From: a virus
Reading direction: 5' to 3' (one strand)
Length of the DNA: 24,215 nucleotides
Virus record (IMG/VR): IMGVR_UViG_3300029812_000162
Span: 1 to 24,215 of that record
A model generated the notes under the pieces. It did not search any database. It was not told where the DNA came from and was given only the letters and a program-made list of their open reading frames with translations. The first letter of the stretch is position 1; each line of letters opens with the position of its first letter. The translations under genes and the position numbers were made by a program. Shown in pieces: positions 164 through 21,611 of the stretch.

Positions 164-262
164 CTATTCTCCAGTCAATCCGTGATATGCTGCTCTTGCG
201 TCTTCATCCTCTTTATCATTCCCTTGCTTCTCTTTACTTCTTGTAATTTCTTGGCCGGGCGC
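164..262 (-). pseudogene. Orphan C-terminal tail of an FmdB-like gene
   Basis: Read leftward from about 262, this stretch encodes PGQEITRSKEKQGN followed by an acidic tail ending LTGE and a TAG stop at 164-166. The same PGQEITRSKEKQGN sequence is in the C-terminal tail of the intact FmdB-type zinc ribbon gene at 7724-7987. No zinc-ribbon part precedes it here. Upstream the sequence belongs to a different ORF (234-443), whose last eight or so codons read the duplicated DNA in another frame. I therefore interpret this as the 3' end of a second, deleted fmdB-like gene onto which another gene has been joined. Confidence 0.6.
207..260. repeat. 54-base dispersed direct repeat, copy 1 (partner 7773-7826)
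   Basis: Bases 207-260 match 7773-7826 in 53 of 54 positions; the only difference is T at 216 against C at 7782. The last 44 bases are identical. Such identity over 7.5 kb indicates recent duplication or recombination between two fmdB-like tails. Confidence 0.9.
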
Positions 263-681: not shown

Positions 682-715
682 TTCATTTCTCCTAAATAAT
701 GTTCCTTATATTTAA

Positions 716-743
716 AGTATAATATATTTTAGAAGAAATACAA
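716..743 (-). promoter_or_regulatory. Promoter cassette type A, copy 1 (leftward)
   Basis: On the minus strand TTGTAT (743-738) and TATACT (721-716) are separated by exactly 16 bases. The spacer and flanks match six other sites in the window, with TTTTTCAT upstream and TTTAAATATAAGGA downstream. It lies just beyond the 3' end of folE and points at the genes at 681 and 443. Confidence 0.8.
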
Positions 744-751
744 ATGAAAAA

Positions 752-1342
752 TCAAAATTTTATGGTATCTTGAATATGACTCAAAAATTCTTCTCTTGTA
801 GACTGATCCTCCTTAAAACTCCCAGCAATAGAAGTAGTCACCATAACCGCCTCGGGTTTTTTAATCCCCCGCATACGCATGCAAAAATGCTGTCCTCGAA
901 CACGAGCAGCAGCACCCGTAGCATTTATTGACATCAAATACCTTGTTATCTCTTCTGTAAGTTGCTCTTGAATAACCGGGCGTTTTGCCAACAATTCAAC
1001 CAATCTGGGTAACTTAGAAAGACCAAGAACTTTTCCATTTGGAATATACGCAAGATCAATATACATTTCAGTTGGGAGGAAATGGTGAGGACACATAGAA
1101 AATGTATGTATATTTTTCACTACAATCATTTGATCCATATCATCCTCAAAAGCTGTAGATAAAATCTTTTCTACCTGTTGATCGGTATTCTTTATCCCTT
1201 GAAAAATCTCAGCATAGGCCTTTGCAACTCTTCTGGGAGTACCTATAAAATGTTGATCCTCTATCCTTAAACCAAAATCTTCTTTAAGTCCTCGCAAAAT
1301 GAGTTCCACTCCTTCTTCAATTAAATTCTTATTCTCGCACAT
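752..1342 (-). CDS. folE: GTP cyclohydrolase I (EC 3.5.4.16)
   Basis: This enzyme converts GTP to 7,8-dihydroneopterin triphosphate, the first step of folate synthesis and also of the queuosine/7-deazaguanine (preQ0) pathway. The 196-aa length fits the family. Visible motifs are GTPRRVAKAY (34-43), the zinc and catalytic block SMCPHHFLP (82-90, with C84, H86 and H87), the YIPNGKVLGLSKLPRLV core (99-115), and HFCMRMRG (152-159, with H152 and zinc ligand C154). The usual CEHH is CPHH here. Phage folE genes often belong to 7-deazaguanine DNA modification clusters, but no queC, queD, queE or transglycosylase (dpdA) gene is visible in this window, so its pathway here is open. Downstream lies a type A promoter. 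Upstream is a scar containing a fragment resembling codons 17-27 of this same gene. Confidence 0.95.
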   Translation of the reverse strand: MCENKNLIEEGVELILRGLKEDFGLRIEDQHFIGTPRRVAKAYAEIFQGIKNTDQQVEKILSTAFEDDMDQMIVVKNIHTFSMCPHHFLPTEMYIDLAYIPNGKVLGLSKLPRLVELLAKRPVIQEQLTEEITRYLMSINATGAAARVRGQHFCMRMRGIKKPEAVMVTTSIAGSFKEDQSTREEFLSHIQDTIKF

Positions 1343-1375
1343 CTGATTTCCCTTTTCTTAATTCATACTAACTAA

Positions 1376-1463
1376 CTCAAATACCCATCAAGTACATTCT
1401 GACAAGCACTAACATAATTCATGTCTTCACTAAAACTTCATACCCTACCCCCTCCACACACCA
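1376..1463 (-). pseudogene. Degenerate copy of the 3' end of the 159-aa gene
   Basis: Read leftward, this stretch matches the last 28 or so codons of the gene at 2733-3212 (TATGAAGTT..., TGTCAGAATGTACTTGATG...), but carries frameshifts and stops. The match is easy to see as CATCAAGTACATTCTGACA, which occurs both here and near 2765. The two copies flank the tnpB element, so this is a rearrangement scar rather than a gene. Confidence 0.7.
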
Positions 1464-1493
1464 TCTTCAAACCAAAATCCTCTTTAAGTCCTT
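1461..1493 (-). repeat. folE-like segment abutting the tnpB right end (candidate guide)
   Basis: Starting at the base after the TCAC that probably ends the element (1497-1494), the minus strand reads AAGGACTTAAAGAGGATTTT and continues into GGTTT. It matches the folE coding sequence at 1293-1261 in 28 of 33 positions, with 18 of the first 20 matching. In TnpB systems the bases directly 3' of the right end are transcribed as the guide of the omega RNA, so this is the expected guide position. Confidence 0.65.
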
Positions 1494-1533
1494 GTGAGCT
1501 ACCTATGAATCTTAGGATTCACAGGCTTCCTGC
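1494..1533 (-). mobile_element. IS200/IS605-type right end with hairpin (omega RNA scaffold end)
   Basis: The last codons of tnpB run into a 10-bp stem (CCTGTGAATC, loop CTAA, GATTCATAGG, at 1525-1502, with one G-T pair) followed by TAGCTCAC. A GAAGCC-stem-loop-stem-TAG-CAC layout overlapping the tnpB stop codon is typical of IS1341-like right ends. In such elements this hairpin forms the 3' part of the omega RNA scaffold and the guide follows it. The exact end after TCAC is inferred. Confidence 0.65.
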
Positions 1534-2726
1534 TTCAATAAAGCGTGTTTTTGCTTCTCCACAGGCATTACTTTTCTACACTCCATAGAAAGTTTTAATC
1601 CTTCATTCAAAATATTTCTTGCAGCATGAATATCCCTATCTTCTGAGTAACCACAACTACAAGAATACCTTCTTTTATCCAAAAAATGTTTGTTTAACAC
1701 ACCACAATTAGGACATAACTGGGTAGAAGGAAAATATCTATCAATCACGAGAGTCTCTGGTTTGTCTTTCAAACTAGAAATTATCCCTCCCATGATCGAA
1801 TGTTGTATTCTTCTACCCCAACCCCTCATTCTACTACTTTTCCATTCTGCTATTGATTCATCCTGAATCACAACCAAATCATTCTCCTTAACTAATTTCG
1901 ATACAAATTTATTTTTTGCATCTTTCTTCTTGTTTGTTAATTTTTCATATTGCTTATTCAATAATAACTTTTGTTTAAATCTATTATTGCTTCCTTTTCT
2001 CTTTCTATTCAATCTCCTACTAACTTTCTTTAATAATTTAAACTCCGAAAATCGAAAATTATATTTATTACCAGCCGAATCAACAATATTATCCTTAATT
2101 CCGAAATCAAGGCCAATTGATTTTCCCGTTTTAATTCTTTTCTCTTTTGAAACAAAACAAGTTATCTTCAAATAATAATCACCATTTCTAGAAATCAAAA
2201 TAGCATTAGCAATGTCAACACTTTCCGGAATTTGGTCTAAACCACTAACCCTAAACCGTTTTCTCCCAAAACCCTGAATCCTTATATATTTTCCATTAAC
2301 AATTTTATGAGTACTTCCAAACTGTACCAACGGGATAGAACCCACTTGACTCTTGAACTTCAATCTCCCTATCTTACACCCTTTCTTTTTAGCTTTTGAT
2401 AGGTTTAAAATATTCTGTTTTGTTTGCTCAATCAAAGATTGTTTCATCTGGGAAGATAAATACTTTATTTCTCTTTTCTCTTTCTGCTTCTCTCGGTTCA
2501 AGACTTCAACCTCTTTTGTCTTATAAGAAAAATCAAATATATCTTCAAGAGATAGTTGATAATTATATAACCACTTTGCCTCAACAAATAGCATCTTAAG
2601 ATGATGTAACTTTTCTTTTGATAAATGAGACTTATCAAGTTTTACTTCAAACACTTTACAATCCTGAGATTTTCTCTTCTCTCGTGTTTGTTGTCTAGTT
2701 TGTTTTATTTTTTCGTTCTTAGTCAT
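1512..2726 (-). CDS. tnpB: RNA-guided endonuclease TnpB (IS200/IS605 OrfB family)
   Basis: TnpB proteins are RNA-guided RuvC nucleases, the ancestors of Cas12. The 404-aa length is normal. The N-terminal region contains the conserved MLFVEAKWLYNYQLSLED (45-62). RuvC-I is GLDFGI with D207; RuvC-II is VVIQDESIAEW with the acidic pair D289-E290; the zinc finger is CPNC (338-341) with CSCG (356-359); RuvC-III is DRDIHAARNIL with D365. In RuvC-II the usual glutamate column reads Q; the QDE form is known to me from other TnpB branches, so this need not mean loss of activity. The start ATG follows AAGAGAAA and is six bases after the stop of the upstream gene, so translation may be coupled. The C-terminal end KQEACES overlaps the right-end hairpin. 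Confidence 0.93.
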   Translation of the reverse strand: MTKNEKIKQTRQQTREKRKSQDCKVFEVKLDKSHLSKEKLHHLKMLFVEAKWLYNYQLSLEDIFDFSYKTKEVEVLNREKQKEKREIKYLSSQMKQSLIEQTKQNILNLSKAKKKGCKIGRLKFKSQVGSIPLVQFGSTHKIVNGKYIRIQGFGRKRFRVSGLDQIPESVDIANAILISRNGDYYLKITCFVSKEKRIKTGKSIGLDFGIKDNIVDSAGNKYNFRFSEFKLLKKVSRRLNRKRKGSNNRFKQKLLLNKQYEKLTNKKKDAKNKFVSKLVKENDLVVIQDESIAEWKSSRMRGWGRRIQHSIMGGIISSLKDKPETLVIDRYFPSTQLCPNCGVLNKHFLDKRRYSCSCGYSEDRDIHAARNILNEGLKLSMECRKVMPVEKQKHALLKQEACES

Positions 2727-2732
2727 TTTCTC

Positions 2733-3212
2733 TTAATCTACATCATTTACTAGTTCAAAATGCTCATCAAGTACATTCTGACAGATATTAACATGACCCC
2801 TGTTCTCGTGGAAAACTTCGTATCTTTTGCCTCCTCCATATTGATCATCCTCACCAAAATACCCAATCTTATAAACTTCACCTACTAAAATTGGTGGATC
2901 CAACCAATCTACTTCTTGCAAACAACGATAATCTTGAGCCGTTTCAAAAGCATTTTCCAACCTCTCTTCCTCAGCCTCCTCTGCCAAAACCCTCCGAGAT
3001 ACCTCACGATAAGTATTCATAGCTTCCTGAAAAATTCCGAGAGCTTGATAATGATCATAACTACCCCAGTTTACTATTTCGTAGATAAACCGTTCTGCCG
3101 CGTATGCCTTCCAGTTCTCTGGAATCTGCGCAAAGAAATCCCGCACCTTATCAAGCTCTATCTCAATCTCTTCTTCAGTTAACTTTTTTCCAAATTCTTC
3201 TTCATTTTTCAT
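2733..3212 (-). CDS. Hypothetical protein, 159 aa, acidic
   Basis: No family is recognised. ATG at 3212 follows AGGAGATTACAGTC, a good ribosome binding site. The protein is rich in Glu and Asp, mainly helical in its first 100 residues, and ends with a stretch containing GGGKRYEVFHENRGHVN that looks like a small beta domain. It lies 20 bases downstream of the helicase gene, so it is probably co-transcribed with it. Its 3' end is duplicated, in decayed form, on the far side of the tnpB element (1376-1463). Confidence 0.7.
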   Translation of the reverse strand: MKNEEEFGKKLTEEEIEIELDKVRDFFAQIPENWKAYAAERFIYEIVNWGSYDHYQALGIFQEAMNTYREVSRRVLAEEAEEERLENAFETAQDYRCLQEVDWLDPPILVGEVYKIGYFGEDDQYGGGKRYEVFHENRGHVNICQNVLDEHFELVNDVD

Positions 3213-7746: not shown

Positions 7747-7987
7747 CTTTTACCTTCTTTTTAGTCCTATTTTCCTCTTTACCATTCCCTTGCTTCTCTT
7801 TACTTCTTGTAATTTCTTGGCCGGGCCAACCCCCGCCTTTAAAAAGCACTCCACCGCCAGCCCCTATCAATCTCTGCAGCTTCAACTTACCACATTCTGG
7901 GCACTTCCGCTTGGGTTTCTTGGTTATACCTTGAAACACTTCAAATACATAACCACAATTCTTACATTTGTAGTCGTATGTTGGCAT
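7724..7987 (-). CDS. FmdB-type zinc ribbon protein
   Basis: FmdB-family proteins are small putative regulatory zinc ribbons that are widespread in bacteria and phages. Here MPTYDYKCKNCGYVFEVFQ is followed by KCPECGKL, giving CKNC (8-11) and CPEC (29-32), then a glycine-rich GAGGGVLFKGGGWPGQ and a long charged tail. The MPTYxYxCxxCG start is diagnostic. The last 37 or so residues are an extension, and part of the DNA coding it (7773-7826) is duplicated at 207-260. ATG at 7987 has only a weak ribosome binding site. Confidence 0.85.
   Translation of the reverse strand: MPTYDYKCKNCGYVFEVFQGITKKPKRKCPECGKLKLQRLIGAGGGVLFKGGGWPGQEITRSKEKQGNGKEENRTKKKVKGAEEGGV
7773..7826. repeat. 54-base dispersed direct repeat, copy 2 (partner 207-260)
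   Basis: This lies inside the fmdB-like gene, coding part of its charged C-terminal tail, and matches 207-260 with a single mismatch. This copy is in the intact gene, so it is probably the parental context. Confidence 0.9.
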
Positions 7988-8767: not shown

Positions 8768-8773
8768 ATTATT

Positions 8774-9029
8774 TTTCTCTTTTCTTTCTGCCTCTCTCGA
8801 TTTATAATTTCAACTTCTTTTATTTATAAGAAAGATCAAATACATCCTCAAGAGACAACTGATAGTTATACAGCCATTTTGCCTCAACAAAAAGCATCTT
8901 AAGATGATGCAACTTCTTCTTTGATAAATGAGGCTTATCAAACTTTACTTCAAATGTTTTACAATTCAGGAATTCTCTCCTTTTCTGTATTCGTAATTTA
9001 GTTTGTCTTGTTCTTTCATTCTTATCCAT
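8774..9029 (-). pseudogene. tnpB: Truncated, frameshifted tnpB remnant
   Basis: The ORF starts at ATG 9029 (MDKNERTRQTK) and runs 69 codons to a stop at 8820-8822. About 48 of 69 residues match the N-terminus of the intact TnpB, including LHHLKMLFVEAKWLYNYQLS. At the stop a single-base deletion shifts the frame; in the shifted frame KEVEI-NREER-KEK continues to match TnpB until about 8774, where the homology ends at a promoter. All RuvC motifs and the right end are missing, so it cannot be functional. The start codon lies one base after the ligase stop, the same gene-end placement as the intact tnpB. Confidence 0.85.
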
Positions 9030-9030
9030 T

Positions 9031-10368
9031 TCACAGAACCTGGGAATCCAAAAACTTTTCTTCCATCCGACACTCTGTCCAACTTTTATCCTCTCGAAAT
9101 CCGCGATCCCAATCACACACCGCGTGCATAAACCTTTTCGACTTAGGAGAAACATCTTGACCATTTATAACCAGAACCTTTCTCAAAAACCGTGGATTCA
9201 AAACAGGCTTCCCTTCGCCATCATATATAGTCATTGCTTCACGCAACACCATAGTCATCGCTGACACTACGGCAATCACTGTCTCCCGCTCATTCCCATT
9301 TTCATCCACCAATGCAGTTGACATTTCAAGACCTCCTATCAAATGGGCCCAAGCATTTTTAGAATTTGAAGGAACAAATCCTGTAATATACGCGTCGATA
9401 TCCACGCCACCAGCCTCCTCCATTGACCTTTTCCTTTTTACAAAGCCCCGTTTTGAACGAGAAGAAGTTCGAATATATGGTGAATGCATATTCTTGAGTA
9501 CAATTCCCTCGTCACCCTCAGCAAGCATCTTTTCGTAGAATTCTTGTTTTGAATCACAATTAGAATCCACCTCGGATATTTCAATACCCACTCTATGCTT
9601 CAATTGATCAACAAGATATTCTCGAGTATTCAATCTATGCCAGAGGTCTTCTTTCCATGACATCTTCACTCCAGACTGCAAAACATCAAAAACTACCAAT
9701 CGAAGAGGAGCTTGTTCTCTTTGTATCCTATGACTGATGTCAGTTTCTATAGCCAGTATAGTTATGACCGCGTTGAGCTTCGAGCCAGTGACTGTTCCTT
9801 GCTTACCACGATAAAGAGTGGTGTTTATATCTACTTTGTCGCATAGAGCCTCTGCGTCAAGGACAAAAGAATATGGGAATACCCCCTTAAGTGACTTAGC
9901 ATTAACCAACCCCTCCCCTTCCAAATTACACCAGTCTGGCTGTAATCTCTTCAGCTTAATCAAAATCTTATTAGTATAATCTATCGGAAGAAAGTCTGTT
10001 ACTGATATATTACGTGAAAAGAATCCAAATCCTTCATCAGGGTGATAAGTAATAAGCATGCGACAACCATTAAGCTTCCTCTCAGCAATCCAATTATCAG
10101 ATTCCATACATTCCTGCTGTTCCTCAAGTTTCAAATGTTTATACGAATAACAAAGCATAAGATCATCCAATTTCAATCTTTGCTGCAAACCCCAGGATAA
10201 CTTACCCCATCCACCACGTTGCTCAATAGAATACTCAGCTAATAACTTTATCATCACCTTACTACTAATCTTACCTTCAGGAAGTTCAATTCCCCTTGAG
10301 AAACATTCCTCTCTTAATTCACTTATTTTTCTACCCATGTTTACTAACCATTCCCTTCTATTTGCCAT
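9031..10368 (-). CDS. ATP-dependent DNA ligase
   Basis: The enzyme seals nicks in DNA using ATP, probably during phage replication or repair. Nucleotidyltransferase motifs are in order: motif I KLNG with the adenylated lysine K98 (WIAERKLNGCRM), SRN at 118-120, motif III FVLDAEA (E173), motif IV DEGIVLKN (286-293) and motif V FVKRKR (309-314). A C-terminal OB-like region follows. The 445-aa length is normal for a phage ligase. The start is uncertain: ATG 10368 overlaps the upstream 46-aa gene by 25 bases with only a weak GGG upstream; ATG 10338 lies just after that gene's stop. The 3' end is followed at once by the tnpB remnant. Confidence 0.9.
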   Translation of the reverse strand: MANRREWLVNMGRKISELREECFSRGIELPEGKISSKVMIKLLAEYSIEQRGGWGKLSWGLQQRLKLDDLMLCYSYKHLKLEEQQECMESDNWIAERKLNGCRMLITYHPDEGFGFFSRNISVTDFLPIDYTNKILIKLKRLQPDWCNLEGEGLVNAKSLKGVFPYSFVLDAEALCDKVDINTTLYRGKQGTVTGSKLNAVITILAIETDISHRIQREQAPLRLVVFDVLQSGVKMSWKEDLWHRLNTREYLVDQLKHRVGIEISEVDSNCDSKQEFYEKMLAEGDEGIVLKNMHSPYIRTSSRSKRGFVKRKRSMEEAGGVDIDAYITGFVPSNSKNAWAHLIGGLEMSTALVDENGNERETVIAVVSAMTMVLREAMTIYDGEGKPVLNPRFLRKVLVINGQDVSPKSKRFMHAVCDWDRGFREDKSWTECRMEEKFLDSQVL

Positions 10369-10489: not shown

Positions 10490-10708
10490 CTATCTCCCAG
10501 GAATTATCTTCTTAGCTTTACCCTCTTTAGTTAGAACAACTTTATGAATTGTCTCATGATCTAATTTCATAAGACGAGCAGTTTGGCGTTTATTAAAAAC
10601 CTGAGCTTTGCTGATTTTATGAAAATATCCCCCCACAAAACAATAAAATCTACAATCCCCTTTAGAGAGAAACTTCTCTTGTAATATCCAACCGTGTTTC
10701 TTTTTCAT
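10490..10708 (-). CDS. Small basic hypothetical protein, 72 aa
   Basis: ATG 10708 follows TAGGAGATAAAT, a strong ribosome binding site, about 20 bases after the -10 box of the promoter at 10728-10755. The product is basic (MKKKHGWILQEKF ... KEGKAKKIIPGR) with two cysteines (CRFYCF) but no recognised fold. It is probably the first gene of the operon containing the 46-aa membrane protein and the ligase. Confidence 0.65.
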   Translation of the reverse strand: MKKKHGWILQEKFLSKGDCRFYCFVGGYFHKISKAQVFNKRQTARLMKLDHETIHKVVLTKEGKAKKIIPGR

Positions 10709-10727
10709 ATTTATCTCCTATATTTAA

Positions 10728-10755
10728 ATTATAATATACTTTTGAGGAAATACAA
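10728..10755 (-). promoter_or_regulatory. Promoter cassette type A, copy 3 (leftward)
   Basis: On the minus strand TTGTAT (10755-10750) and TATAAT (10733-10728) are separated by 16 bases, with TTTAAATATAGGA downstream. It begins two bases beyond the stop codon of the initiator-like gene and drives the 72-aa gene and the ligase operon. Confidence 0.82.
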
Positions 10756-10756
10756 A

Positions 10757-12046
10757 TTAAATCTCTAACATGTAATCAAGTTCTGGATTATCCGTATCAC
10801 CAATAGGTTTATCTGATTGAATACTCTGCTTCTGCAAATTTCTTTCAATATCTTTTGTCAGGTGTTCCTCCTCGGCTACTATACCATCAAACTCCTCTGT
10901 AGCTTGCTCATGATAATCATACATTTTCACTTGTGGAATGTTTTCGAAATACTGTGGCATATATTTCACCCAGGTAGCCTCAGAACAAAATGAACCGGGA
11001 TGAACAATTCCACCCTTATTGGTATAATGTTCTCTTAACACCATAACCAAATCAGATAGTAAAGAATCCACGCAAAATTCTGTTGGATCAGGCCCAAGCT
11101 TCTCTAACAAAATCTTAGTGGTTTCAATAAACTTATTATGATCCTTATTTGTAAGTCTATAATCCTTTCCCACGAAAGACTTATACTGTTTCACAACTTT
11201 TTGAGTTATATCAGGTCGAGGGTCATTAAGTAATTTTTCTTGTTGAGTATTACTAAAACTTTTAGAAGAATTATTCTTAGTGGCCAACTCTGTCTTAACA
11301 AGTAACTCATCATAGTTATCAACAATTTTCTTAGCTGAAAAGTGAAAGAAATTATTCCCCTTTGAAGAATATACATATTTCAACACTTTGATAGTTTCCT
11401 TGTAATCTCGTTGTCCTTTTTCAAGATGTCGTTTAAATTGTTTAGACCATTTTTGTAAAACTATTTCAATTCCTTTTGATTCACTAAAAGATGATTTGTT
11501 ATAATCTGGGTAAAGTTTAAGTACAATACAAAGCATGTCTTCCGCCAATTCATAGTGTTTTGTAATCTTCTTTACAGTAGCTTTTTTTGAGGAAGTATTT
11601 TTTGAAGAATGGTCTGCTGATTTCTTTTCAGCAAAACCTTTTTTATTAATATTATTTTTTATATTATGTATTAATGTATTATTATGTTCATGTTTTTCTG
11701 AACTATTGTTAAGATTTTTATTAAGTTCGGGTTCATGTTTTTCTGAACTATCATCAAGTATAGACTTAAGATTTTTATTAAGTGTGATAAGACGTTTTTT
11801 TCCATTTGATGGTATATCAAGTATGATTCCTTTTTTTCTAAAACTACTTATAATGTTAGCTACATGACCTTCAGAAATTTGAAGGTGTTCTGCAAAGTGC
11901 TTATTTGAAGCAAAGCATTTATTCTTTTTATCTAAATTATTAATTTCAATTAGAAGAATTTTTTCAGTCCAGTTAAATTCCTTACTTAAACAAAGGGAAT
12001 TTGGAATCCAGATTCCTCTAAATTTCTGTTTTTCATCTTGACTCAT
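10757..12046 (-). CDS. Replication-initiator-like protein with N-terminal winged helix
   Basis: This is probably a phage replication protein (replisome organiser or origin binding). Residues 25-80 read as a winged helix-turn-helix (FNWTEKILLIEINNL, then SNKHFAEHLQISEGHVANII and FRKKGII), a layout common in phage replication proteins. Next is an Asn/Ser/Lys-rich, repetitive linker (about 85-160) with two copies of a LNKNL/SSEKHE unit. The C-terminal half (residues 230-380) is a helical domain ending in SFCSEATWVKYMPQYF. The linker DNA carries direct repeats and an AT-rich tract that resemble an origin. ATG 12046 has GGAG about 12 bases upstream. The family cannot be named with certainty; a DnaD-like or lambda-O-like role fits the layout. 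Confidence 0.6.
   Translation of the reverse strand: MSQDEKQKFRGIWIPNSLCLSKEFNWTEKILLIEINNLDKKNKCFASNKHFAEHLQISEGHVANIISSFRKKGIILDIPSNGKKRLITLNKNLKSILDDSSEKHEPELNKNLNNSSEKHEHNNTLIHNIKNNINKKGFAEKKSADHSSKNTSSKKATVKKITKHYELAEDMLCIVLKLYPDYNKSSFSESKGIEIVLQKWSKQFKRHLEKGQRDYKETIKVLKYVYSSKGNNFFHFSAKKIVDNYDELLVKTELATKNNSSKSFSNTQQEKLLNDPRPDITQKVVKQYKSFVGKDYRLTNKDHNKFIETTKILLEKLGPDPTEFCVDSLLSDLVMVLREHYTNKGGIVHPGSFCSEATWVKYMPQYFENIPQVKMYDYHEQATEEFDGIVAEEEHLTKDIERNLQKQSIQSDKPIGDTDNPELDYMLEI
11630..11783. repeat. Direct repeats plus AT-rich tract inside the initiator gene (candidate origin)
   Basis: A 21-base sequence (GTTCATG...CTGAACTAT) occurs identically at 11686-11706 and 11731-11751. An 18-base sequence (TTAAGATTTTTATTAAGT) occurs identically at 11709-11726 and 11766-11783. 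Each 21-mer carries GTTCA/TGAAC as inverted arms, and each 18-mer CTTAA/TTAAG or TTAA/TTAA arms. Directly beside them (11630-11690) is an almost pure AT tract. Iteron-like repeats next to an unwinding-prone tract inside an initiator gene recall the lambda O arrangement. Confidence 0.5.
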
Positions 12047-12097: not shown

Positions 12098-12595
12098 TCA
12101 TTTAATCTCTTGAATCATTTTAATATCCTCGTCTGAAAGTTCAAACCATTCTCCACTTATTCTTTTACTTGCAAAGATAGCATGAAATTCCATTTCATCT
12201 GCAACAATATCAATACTTGATATGGTATGAAGTACTTCTACAGCACTATTTGGGTGTGTACCTTTAATACTTGCAATCCTGATTTCAGGAGTCTGGGACG
12301 TTCTCCCAATTTTTACATACTCGTCTTTCTTTACAAAATAAATATACCCTGATTTAGGCTCTCGAATCGAAGGAGTACTACTTATAGCCTCAATCTGGTT
12401 CTCAAATTCTGATTGGGCTTTAAAATTATATAGGTCAATGAATTCCTGACCTTTTGTTTTAATAGATTTCAAATGCTTAATTGTCAAATCAATCATCTCT
12501 ATACTTGGAAGCAAGGATTTACCACAGTTATCATCAAAAGTATACAAAGAGTTGTCACTATCAATTCCCACTCCAAAACTACGTAAATTTTCCAT
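12098..12595 (-). CDS. T5orf172/Mug113-type GIY-YIG-like protein, 165 aa
   Basis: The C-terminal half fits the T5orf172/MUG113 family, a GIY-YIG-related fold: GYIYFVKKDEYVKIGRTS (83-100), RIASIKGTHPN, VLHTI, then EMEFHAIFASKRISGEWFEL (134-153). In such proteins the Y(I/V)Y, KIGRT, E-H and GEWF elements are the conserved core and a nuclease activity is suspected but rarely shown. The N-terminal 80 residues are not recognised; they may be a targeting or DNA-binding region. ATG 12595 lies directly after the stop of the NADAR remnant, with AAAGG upstream. It is the first leftward gene of the replication arm. Confidence 0.8.
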   Translation of the reverse strand: MENLRSFGVGIDSDNSLYTFDDNCGKSLLPSIEMIDLTIKHLKSIKTKGQEFIDLYNFKAQSEFENQIEAISSTPSIREPKSGYIYFVKKDEYVKIGRTSQTPEIRIASIKGTHPNSAVEVLHTISSIDIVADEMEFHAIFASKRISGEWFELSDEDIKMIQEIK

Positions 12596-13162: not shown

Positions 13163-13190
13163 TTGAATTTATAGGATATCTATTTATAAT
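13163..13190 (+). promoter_or_regulatory. Promoter type B, copy 2 (rightward)
   Basis: TTGAAT (13163-13168) and TATAAT (13185-13190) are 16 bases apart. The 20 bases at 13160-13179 are identical to copy 1. A perfect palindrome (AATTTTTAAAAATT) lies directly upstream. A type A promoter follows 28 bases later, making a tandem pair. Confidence 0.7.
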
Positions 13191-13217
13191 TATATTTATA
13201 AATTTGAAAAATTTAGT

Positions 13218-13245
13218 TTGTATTTCCTCCAAAATATATTATAAT
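13218..13245 (+). promoter_or_regulatory. Promoter cassette type A, copy 4 (rightward)
   Basis: TTGTAT (13218-13223) and TATAAT (13240-13245) are separated by 16 bases, followed by ATAAATATAAGAA. It drives the microprotein and sigma-factor cluster beginning at 13297. Confidence 0.82.
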
Positions 13246-13296
13246 ATAAATATAAGAAATGCTATTTAACAAATTGTGGGAGAGTAATAGATAACA

Positions 13297-14590: not shown

Positions 14591-14624
14591 ATTGAAAAAT
14601 ATTTTGTAAATTTTTGATTTTTGT

Positions 14625-14652
14625 TTGTATTTCTTCAAAAGTATATTATACT
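14625..14652 (+). promoter_or_regulatory. Promoter cassette type A, copy 5 (rightward)
   Basis: TTGTAT (14625-14630) and TATACT (14647-14652) are separated by 16 bases, followed by TTAAATATAAGGAACGTTAT, nearly identical to copy 1 on the other strand. It drives the 37-aa basic and 73-aa membrane genes. Confidence 0.82.
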
Positions 14653-14757
14653 TTAAATATAAGGAACGTTATTCTGGAGAATTAAATCAAGGTTTCAGTG
14701 TGTACAATGCCCGTTACCATCGCTGGGTTGATACAGAAAACAAAAGTGGGGAATAAT

Positions 14758-16583: not shown

Positions 16584-16723
16584 TATTAGCATCAAGTGTA
16601 GCGGTGATGATTACTACTTGAAAGTATCAACATATACAGGATGCTCGACAGTACGTAAGTTATTTGGCTAAAAGAATTGAATACAAATGTAGTTCTAAAA
16701 GTATAAAATTTTTAATTTTTCAT

Positions 16724-16751
16724 TTGTATTTCCACTAAAGTATATTATAAT
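16724..16751 (+). promoter_or_regulatory. Promoter cassette type A, copy 6 (rightward)
   Basis: TTGTAT (16724-16729) and TATAAT (16746-16751) are separated by 16 bases, with TTTTTCA upstream and TTAAATATAGGGA downstream. It drives the 112-aa gene and probably the DUF932-like gene. Confidence 0.82.
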
Positions 16752-16804
16752 TTAAATATAGGGATTAAAAAGAAACAACATTTAAAATATGGGTTTTATT
16801 GGCT

Positions 16805-18412: not shown

Positions 18413-18487
18413 AGCGGGGTAGAGCAGTCCGGTTAGCTTGTCAGCCTCATAAGCTGAAGGTCGTAGGTTCGAATCCTGCCCCCGCTA
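18413..18487 (+). tRNA. tRNA-Met (anticodon CAU)
   Basis: The acceptor stem AGCGGGG/CCCCGCT, the anticodon stem TCAGC/GCTGA with loop CTCATAA (anticodon CAT at 18448-18450), and the T arm GTAGG-TTCGAAT-CCTGC are all well formed. CCA is not encoded. The body (GCGGGGTAGAGCAG, GTTAGCT) resembles bacterial initiator tRNA, but the three G-C pairs of the initiator anticodon stem and the 1-72 mismatch are absent. A CAU anticodon could also mark an isoleucine tRNA if lysidine-modified. Confidence 0.92.
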
Positions 18488-18535
18488 TTATGAAAGAATT
18501 TCTAATAATATAACCATCGATTTGAAGGATTGATT

Positions 18536-19333
18536 ATGCCTATTCCAAAAGATATCTTAAGAAACAATCCGTGCTTATCGGAGTGGTCTATATTGACAGC
18601 ATATCGAGGGTCAATAGCCCACGGTATGTATATGCCTAAGAAAGATCCCAATTCTATTGATGATAAAGATGTTATAGGTATTTGTATACCCCCAGTTGAC
18701 TATTATTATGGCCTTAAAGAATTTGGTTCAAGAGGAACAAAAGAAATTAAGATAGATGAATGGGACATTGTTGTTTTTGAATACATTAAAGCTCTTCGCC
18801 TTCTTAAAGCCGGCAACCCAAACATTTTGAATATTTTATGGCTAGAACCACAGCACTATATAAAAATAACTCCGGCGGGACAATTGCTTCTTGATAACAG
18901 GGATTTATTTGCAGCAAAGCATGTGTACCATAGCTTTGTTGGATACGCCTGGGGACAGTTGCACGGAATGACTCACTCAGCTTGTAAAGGTTATATGGGA
19001 GAAAAAAGAAAGAAACTTGTTGAAAAATACGGATTTGATGTAAAAAATGGTGCCCACTGTATACGTATTCTTAAGATGGGAATTGAATTCTTAACCGATG
19101 GAGAATTACACGTTTTGAGAAAAGATGCTCAACAACTCTTAGAAATCAAACGTGGGGAATGGTCTTTAGAGCAGATTAAAGCTGAAGCAGAAAGATTATT
19201 TACTGTTGCTGAAACAGCCTTTATCTCTTCCAAACTTCCGGATATGCCGGACAAAGAAAAAATAAATAAACTATGTATTGATATAGCGGAATGTTGGAGA
19301 AAAGAAGGTGGAAGATACCAAAGATTGGCTTAA
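18536..19333 (+). CDS. COG3541-type nucleotidyltransferase (polymerase beta superfamily)
   Basis: The 265-aa product carries the minimal nucleotidyltransferase signature: YRGSIAHGM (23-31, with G25-S26), DDKD (42-45) as the acidic pair, and a third acidic position in DEWDIVVFE (74-82). The N-terminal GSxAHG...DDxD layout and the later FVGYAWGQLHGMT helix match the family often annotated as RNA repair pathway DNA polymerase beta family or YcgL-like. The substrate is unknown; an RNA or tRNA end-repair role is suggested by annotation habits and by its place 49 bases after a tRNA. ATG 18536 follows GAAGGATTGATT. Confidence 0.82.
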   Translation: MPIPKDILRNNPCLSEWSILTAYRGSIAHGMYMPKKDPNSIDDKDVIGICIPPVDYYYGLKEFGSRGTKEIKIDEWDIVVFEYIKALRLLKAGNPNILNILWLEPQHYIKITPAGQLLLDNRDLFAAKHVYHSFVGYAWGQLHGMTHSACKGYMGEKRKKLVEKYGFDVKNGAHCIRILKMGIEFLTDGELHVLRKDAQQLLEIKRGEWSLEQIKAEAERLFTVAETAFISSKLPDMPDKEKINKLCIDIAECWRKEGGRYQRLA

Positions 19334-21110: not shown

Positions 21111-21181
21111 AGGCTGTTAGTATAGTGGAAACACGGTGGGTTTTGGCCCCGCAATCCAAGGTTCGATTCCTTGACAGCCTA
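21111..21181 (+). tRNA. tRNA-Gln (anticodon UUG)
   Basis: The acceptor AGGCTGT/ACAGCCT, anticodon stem GTGGG/CCCGC with loop TTTTGGC (anticodon TTG), and T arm CAAGG-TTCGATT-CCTTG are clear. CCA is not encoded. The D arm (GTATAGTGGAAACAC) is weak but typical of tRNA-Gln. It decodes CAA, a common codon in an AT-rich genome. Confidence 0.92.
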
Positions 21182-21216: not shown

Positions 21217-21275
21217 GCCAGGAGTGGAGAGCGTTTTTCAGCGTTTCGATGAAGCTCCTGGCTATTTTATTTTTT
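21217..21275 (+). terminator. Probable terminator after tRNA-Gln
   Basis: GCCAGGAG (21217-21224) pairs perfectly with CTCCTGGC (21255-21262), directly followed by TATTTTATTTTTTG. The loop is long (30 bases) but has an internal AGCG...GCG(T) element. A small hairpin (AGCCCTT-GTA-AGGGTT, 21197-21212) precedes it. It probably ends the tRNA/HAD transcript; the T tract also serves as the upstream part of the next promoter. Confidence 0.6.
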
Positions 21276-21277
21276 GT

Positions 21278-21305
21278 TTGTATTTTTTCAAAAGTATATT
21301 ATAAT
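21278..21305 (+). promoter_or_regulatory. Promoter cassette type A, copy 7 (rightward)
   Basis: TTGTAT (21278-21283) and TATAAT (21300-21305) are separated by 16 bases. Unlike other copies, the downstream TTAAATATAAGGA is replaced by TTGATAATT and the HNH start codon, nine bases after the -10 box. Confidence 0.82.
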
Positions 21306-21314
21306 TTGATAATT

Positions 21315-21611
21315 ATGGAACTAACTTTAACAAATTCAGATAAGAAAACAATTATTGATGCTAAGCACTATGCTCGAGTATCCCAATATCGTTGGTTTTT
21401 AAAAAAGGTAAATCCATATTCACAGTATGTTGCTACATCGATTCACCAAGATGGAAAATGTCAAACTTTGTATCTACATAGATTTATTATGAAAACTGAA
21501 CCCGGAATGGATGTGCACCATAAAAATTGTAATCCATTGGATAATAGAGAAAAAAATCTTGAAGAACGGCATTCTTTAGAACACAGATGTTGGCATCTTG
21601 CTAATAACTAA
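21315..21611 (+). CDS. HNH homing-type endonuclease, 98 aa
   Basis: Small HNH nucleases of this form act as homing endonucleases in phages. The motif is YLHRFIMKTEPGMDVHHKNC followed by NPLDNREKNL, matching the LHR...G-V-D/H-H-x-N...LDNR-x-NL pattern; H68, H69, N71 and N77 are in place. The start is set at ATG 21315 (MELTLTNSDKKT). The longer frame from 21249 would translate the terminator and promoter and is rejected. With the -10 box ending at 21305, the transcript would begin two to five bases before the ATG, so the mRNA would be almost leaderless. Confidence 0.82.
   Translation: MELTLTNSDKKTIIDAKHYARVSQYRWFLKKVNPYSQYVATSIHQDGKCQTLYLHRFIMKTEPGMDVHHKNCNPLDNREKNLEERHSLEHRCWHLANN

What the first reader, a model, noticed from the sequence alone, without database searches (positions are those of the whole stretch)
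1474..1531. The tnpB element carries a candidate guide aimed at the genome's own folE
Immediately after the right-end hairpin and TCAC, where TnpB omega RNAs take their guide, the first 20 bases (1493-1474) match folE (1293-1274) at 18 of 20 positions; positions 1 and 14 differ. Over 33 bases 28 match. TnpB is known to cut DNA matching this guide next to a TAM. The intact folE 130 bases away would then be a near-target, perhaps protected by mismatches or by lack of a TAM (its 5' flank is CATTTTGC). A phage using a TnpB guide against folE-carrying rivals, or a homing-like element that once sat in folE, would be new to me.
Basis: partly seen in the sequence, partly recalled or inferred. Interest (0 to 1): 0.78.

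Follow-up and report, generated by a model that had tools for sequence, protein, structure and literature searches.

The report
Phage TnpB with folE-like guide
In this uncultured phage genome, a TnpB nuclease gene stripped of its transposon parts carries, where it normally takes its RNA guide, a scrap of a sister copy of the phage's own folE gene; this looks like the scar of an old insertion and rearrangement at folE, and whether it still cuts folE genes of related phages is open but testable.

Summary
The match is real: minus strand 1493-1474 matches folE at 18/20 and 1493-1461 at 28/33, never reached in shuffles. The guide slot is placed correctly: 22 aligned phage TnpB right ends share a covarying hairpin followed by TAGTTCAC, and PMC11043419 shows that guides start directly after UUCAC. 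TnpB is intact (RuvC D207/E290/D365).

The folE-like piece runs into a decayed copy of the 3' end of the gene on the other side of tnpB. tnpB has no left end, and no TnpA is in the record. Relatives carry other genes in this slot: HNH endonuclease (L006), DNA methylase (L005).

The order ORF159, tnpB, folE' scrap, ORF159 tail, folE is what a tandem join of two ORF159-folE units, with tnpB in the first folE, would leave. The resident folE has none of the inferred TAMs (it reads TTTGC) and differs at guide position 1, so self-cutting is unlikely. No exactly matching allele and no tnpB-interrupted folE was found.

Verdict: observation confirmed; origin in folE probable; weapon or homing function unproven.

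The parts
1512..2726 (-). tnpB, 404 aa, IS605-type RNA-guided nuclease gene with intact RuvC residues D207, E290, D365
   Evidence: Pfam OrfB_IS605 and Cas12f1-like_TNB; NF040570 guided_TnpB above cut-off; alignment to ISDra2 TnpB
1494..1533 (-). Right end / 3' part of the predicted omega-RNA scaffold: hairpin overlapping the tnpB stop, ending TAGCTCAC
   Evidence: Hairpin fold; shared with phage TnpB relatives, 8 of 9 pairs with two-sided changes
1474..1493 (-). Predicted 20-nt guide
   Evidence: Position directly after TCAC; 18/20 to folE 1293-1274
1461..1493 (-). folE' scrap: relic of a diverged folE allele, about codons 17-27
   Evidence: 28/33 to folE 1293-1261; codon-wise 2 synonymous and 2 conservative changes
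1357..1461 (-). Decayed copy of the 3' end of ORF159 (ORF 2733-3212), frameshifted; boundaries approximate
   Evidence: Repeat D1, 78% over 46 nt; alignment score 97 vs maximum 64 in 1000 shuffles
752..1342 (-). Resident intact folE (GTP cyclohydrolase I, 196 aa)
   Evidence: PF01227 E 6.5e-55
1274..1298 (-). Near-target in the resident folE with its 5' flank TTTGC (no inferred TAM)
2733..3212 (-). ORF159, gene of unknown function whose stop lies 6 nt before the tnpB start; its tail is duplicated at 1357-1461
8769..9031 (-). Second tnpB copy, truncated after about 265 bases, starting at the ligase stop codon; no right end, so no guide
   Evidence: 80% identity to 2465-2728; sequence

Best explanation
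This is an IS605-type TnpB gene in a phage replication module that kept the nuclease and its omega-RNA scaffold but lost the left end and any transposase. Its guide slot is filled by about 30 nt of a diverged folE allele. Most likely the element once sat inside a folE copy at about codon 17, so its guide was recorded from folE in the usual TnpB way. A recombination event (tandem duplication or a cross with a related phage) then joined that locus to a second ORF159-folE unit at a short homology (ATTTTGGT..GARGATG), leaving an ORF159 tail relic and an intact folE downstream; the left part of the insertion was lost up to the tnpB start codon. If the omega RNA is still made, TnpB would be aimed at folE alleles close to the relic, while the resident folE should be spared (TTTGC at the TAM position, mismatch at guide position 1). 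Shown: sequence anatomy, scaffold, intact active-site residues, past selection on the protein. Inferred: insertion in folE, order of events, TAM, escape of the resident folE, any present activity.
For: 18/20 and 28/33 match. The scrap starts at the first base after the right-end motif, a boundary fixed by many relatives and by PMC11043419. Differences from folE are codon-like. Order ORF159, tnpB, folE' scrap, ORF159 tail, folE. Similarity of the ORF159 tail and folE at the joint. Element without left-end hairpin and no Y1 transposase in the record, whereas relative L049 has one directly before tnpB. RuvC triad; dN/dS about 0.18 between the two tnpB copies. At the homologous codons the folE of L022 reads TTTAA and of L006 TTTGA, the strong and weak TAM of SisTnpB7.
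Against: No folE interrupted by tnpB and no matching intact allele was found. No folE 5' part remains on the left of tnpB, so a further deletion has to be assumed. Left ends of related viral elements mostly end in AC, which no known folE allele of this group shows at this place, so the TAM evidence points two ways.
Confidence: 0.5

Rival explanations
1. Active intronless homing: TnpB with this folE guide cuts folE in co-infecting relatives that lack tnpB, and repair from this genome copies tnpB together with the resistant folE allele, as free-standing phage homing endonucleases do.
For: Intact nuclease and scaffold retained after loss of the transposon parts; the slot before folE holds an HNH endonuclease in L006; the resident folE differs at the TAM position and guide position 1; TnpB can drive itself through plasmids (PMC11870625).
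Against: No relative with a matching target is known; L005 and L006 match at 14 and 13 of 20. None of about 45 other phage TnpB flanks has an 18/20 match within its own locus. The flank is short and abuts decayed sequence, as a scar would.
Confidence: 0.2
2. Passive hitch-hiking: tnpB arrived by illegitimate recombination and the folE scrap is only a chance breakpoint beside its right end; the element never sat in folE and the guide has no meaning.
For: Short homologies at the joint; left side cut exactly between the ORF159 stop and the tnpB start; second tnpB copy also truncated and flush with a stop codon.
Against: A chance breakpoint would have to fall on the first base after the right-end motif; an insertion explains this directly.
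Confidence: 0.2
3. No folE origin: the whole flank is a decayed ORF159 tail that resembles folE by chance.
For: A gapped alignment of the flank to the ORF159 tail runs through the folE-like stretch; 17 of 500 random window 33-mers reach 28/33 elsewhere.
Against: The folE match is ungapped, 27/30, BLAST E 2.7e-4 over the whole window, same strand and 200 bases away; the ORF159 match there needs several gaps; 0/600 shuffles; codon-like changes.
Confidence: 0.1

Closest known systems
IS200/IS605 TnpB with omega RNA (ISDra2 TnpB, SisTnpB7)
   Same: OrfB/RuvC protein, right-end hairpin overlapping the gene end, guide slot directly after (U/C)UCAC
   Different: No left end and no TnpA in the record; guide slot holds a scrap of a gene that also exists intact 200 bases away
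Intronless homing by free-standing endonucleases of T-even phages (seg, mob; PMC2988022)
   Same: Endonuclease gene set between phage genes next to its possible target gene; an HNH gene occupies the same slot in L006; resident target apparently resistant
   Different: Would be RNA-guided; cutting, target alleles and biased inheritance not shown
TnpB gene drive in plasmids (PMC11870625)
   Same: TnpB guide recorded from an insertion site could cut copies that lack the element
   Different: Phage, no transposase, target would be a gene allele rather than the exact empty site
TldR, phage-encoded nuclease-dead TnpB relatives (PMC13418256)
   Same: Phage-encoded TnpB relative whose guide points to a gene
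   Different: Catalytic triad intact here; not a repressor of that kind

Membership tests
IS200/IS605-type TnpB nuclease | TnpB protein with RuvC D/E/D triad and zinc-finger domain | tested here: met
IS200/IS605-type TnpB nuclease | Right-end hairpin scaffold ending in UUCAC followed by variable guide | tested here: met
   Window ends CUCAC, as L047; covarying hairpin in 22 right ends
Complete IS200/IS605 transposon | Left-end hairpin with target motif upstream of the genes | tested here: not met
   tnpB starts 6 nt after the ORF159 stop; relatives have left-end hairpins
Complete IS200/IS605 transposon | Y1 transposase TnpA | tested here: not met
   No PF01797 match in the 24-kb record; the record may be a fragment
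TnpB target recognition | Guide matches an empty site next to a TAM | tested here: inconclusive
   No exact target in viral contigs; TAM of this TnpB unknown; own folE TTTGC, L006 TTTGA, L022 TTTAA, L005 TCTAG
Intronless homing endonuclease | Gene absent from relatives whose neighbouring target gene is intact | tested here: inconclusive
   L005, L006, L022 have folE without tnpB, but their folE is not a good match to the guide
Intronless homing endonuclease | Cleavage of the target allele and biased inheritance in mixed infection | not testable with these tools
   Needs bench work
TldR | Inactivated RuvC site | tested here: not met
   D207, E290, D365 present
IS607 TnpB with RAGATH-18 RNA | RAGATH-18 match above gathering score | tested here: not met
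   30.8 bits vs gathering 44.9, E 0.031

The most novel reading that the evidence does not exclude
A phage has turned a transposase-less TnpB into an RNA-guided free-standing homing endonuclease: its omega RNA carries a frozen guide against folE of sister phages while its own folE differs at the TAM position and seed, so tnpB and the resistant folE spread together in co-infection.
Probability: 0.18. Interest if true: 0.78.

Novelty: new variant of a known kind. Interest (0 to 1): 0.46.

Why it matters
TnpB genes are common in large phages, often without an obvious transposase. This locus is a concrete case in which the guide slot records a neighbouring metabolic gene that is still present and intact. 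If active, it would join TnpB biology to the long-known intronless homing of phage endonucleases and show how a guide can outlive its transposon; if not, it is a readable fossil of a TnpB insertion in folE and of its repair by recombination.

Tried and rejected
Exact right-end pattern, degenerate guide pattern and degenerate LKGLKEDFG pattern (three hits, none in folE) in viral contigs: no sister locus or target allele. Phage isolates: all folE matches under 60% identity (best about 42%), one weak tnpB DNA match. Genome collection: two TnpBs in one Spirochaetaceae bin only. Empty-site search with right flanks of huge-phage TnpBs to fix a TAM: nothing usable. TAM from left ends: T-rich and ending in AC in most readable relatives, but this element has no left end, so its own TAM stays unknown. 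TldR rejected (active site intact). IS607 rejected (RAGATH-18 score below threshold). A 17/20 match of the L007 guide 1 kb downstream was judged chance (AT-rich; best 33-nt match on that strand 21/33). No structure prediction was run because family and active site were clear from sequence.

Full report
The window is a 24,215-base virus record without a close relative among phage isolates. It is a phage replication module: SNF2 helicase, DnaB-like helicase, ATP-dependent ligase, replication initiator and folE.

Observation. On the minus strand the 20 bases after the tnpB right-end motif (1493-1474) match folE 1293-1274 at 18/20, with mismatches at positions 1 and 14, and 28/33 over 33 bases. 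Shuffles never reach this (0/600 for both lengths; 0 in 100 for up to 3 mismatches). The real window contains repeats, and 17 of 500 random 33-mers also find a 28/33 match elsewhere, but this match is ungapped, on the same strand and 200 bases away. Over the ten full codons the differences are two synonymous changes, R to K and I to M, as between two functional folE alleles; K is the residue of L006 at that column.

Is it a guide? In other phage TnpBs the tnpB end overlaps or precedes a hairpin followed by TAGTTCAC and then a flank that differs from locus to locus. In 22 aligned right ends 8 of 9 hairpin pairs show two-sided changes. The window ends TAGCTCAC, a variant also seen in L047. For SisTnpB7, whose scaffold also ends in UUCAC, the guide is the sequence immediately after it; TTTAA is the cognate TAM and TTTGA a weak one, behind which single mismatches strongly reduce editing, and the native TTCAC-flanked copy is not cut (PMC11043419). 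So 1493-1474 is the predicted guide. TnpB is full length, with D207, E290 and D365 aligned to ISDra2 D191, E278 and D361.

First, directly after the folE-like 33 bases lies a frameshifted copy of the 3' end of ORF 2733-3212 (here ORF159), the gene just upstream of tnpB (alignment score 97 against a maximum of 64 in 1000 shuffles). Second, tnpB starts 6 nt after the ORF159 stop without the left-end hairpin seen in many relatives, and no Y1 transposase is in the record; relative L049 does have a Y1 TnpA directly before tnpB. Third, a second tnpB copy, truncated to its first 265 bases, begins at the ligase stop codon; the two copies diverged under selection on the protein (dN 0.15, dS 0.86). Fourth, the slot before folE is occupied differently in relatives: ORF159 homologue, DNA methylase, folE in L005; helicase, HNH endonuclease fused in frame to folE in L006. 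Neither these nor two further relatives carry tnpB in the records held.

Reading. The order ORF159, tnpB with right end, folE' scrap, ORF159 tail relic, folE is the order left by joining two ORF159-folE units in tandem when tnpB sits in the first folE. The joint falls where folE' and the ORF159 tail are alike (ATTTTGGT..GARGATG), so one illegitimate crossover could make it. Because the scrap starts at the first base after the right-end motif, an insertion inside a folE copy, with the guide recorded from folE, is more likely than a random joint. A further deletion on the left must be assumed. This origin is inference, at about 0.5.

Would it cut its own folE? The resident folE reads TTTGC before the near-target and mismatches guide position 1. 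Left ends of related viral elements mostly end in AC (TTGAC, CTTAC, ATTAC, TTAAC); SisTnpB7 uses TTTAA, weakly TTTGA. TTTGC is none of these, so self-cutting is unlikely, but the TAM of this TnpB is unknown. Other folE alleles at the same codons read TTTGA (L006), TTTAA (L022) and TCTAG (L005); L005 and L006 match the guide at only 14 and 13 of 20 (counted). No exactly matching allele was found, and no folE interrupted by tnpB.

Function. The nuclease and scaffold outlived the transposon ends, the slot before folE holds different mobile-type genes in relatives, and the own folE differs at TAM position and seed. These facts fit an RNA-guided version of intronless homing (PMC2988022; plasmid drive by TnpB, PMC11870625). 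But none of about 45 other phage TnpB flanks (a few with an uncertain right end) has an 18/20 match in its own locus, no target is known and nothing was assayed. I put active homing at about 0.2. The literature searches returned no report of phage TnpB homing into a neighbouring gene; the library lacks most subscription papers, so this is no proof of novelty.

Noticed in passing
window 8769-9031 (-): Truncated second tnpB copy, 80% identical to the first 265 bases of tnpB, starting one base after the ligase stop codon.
   Followed up: partly
L006 3127-4299: HNH endonuclease gene fused in frame to the 5' end of folE, at the slot that holds tnpB in the window.
   Followed up: partly
L005 285-1022: N6_N4 DNA methylase between the ORF159 homologue and folE, split by an in-frame stop (285-578 and 603-1022).
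   Followed up: no
L043 2693-3478: HNH-type ORF directly before the SNF2 helicase in a related phage contig.
   Followed up: no
L051-L084: Many huge-phage contigs carry tnpB of one related group with left-end hairpin and right end, up to two copies per contig, each with a different flank; left ends mostly preceded by TTGAC or TGAC.
   Followed up: partly
window 703-763, 10703-10761, 13182-13288, 14591-14681, 16703-16775, 21265-21307: Family of AT-rich promoter-like repeats (TATAATTTAAATATAAG core) upstream of several genes on both strands.
   Followed up: no
window 207-260 and 7773-7826: 54-bp direct repeat, 98% identical, 7.5 kb apart.
   Followed up: no
window 12098-12595 (-) and 21249-21611 (+): Further possible mobile nuclease-type genes: T5orf172/MUG113 domain protein and an HNH_3 protein.
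   Followed up: no
window 18530-19333 (+): RlaP-like nucleotidyltransferase of the RNA repair type close to two tRNA genes (18413-18487, 21111-21181).
   Followed up: no
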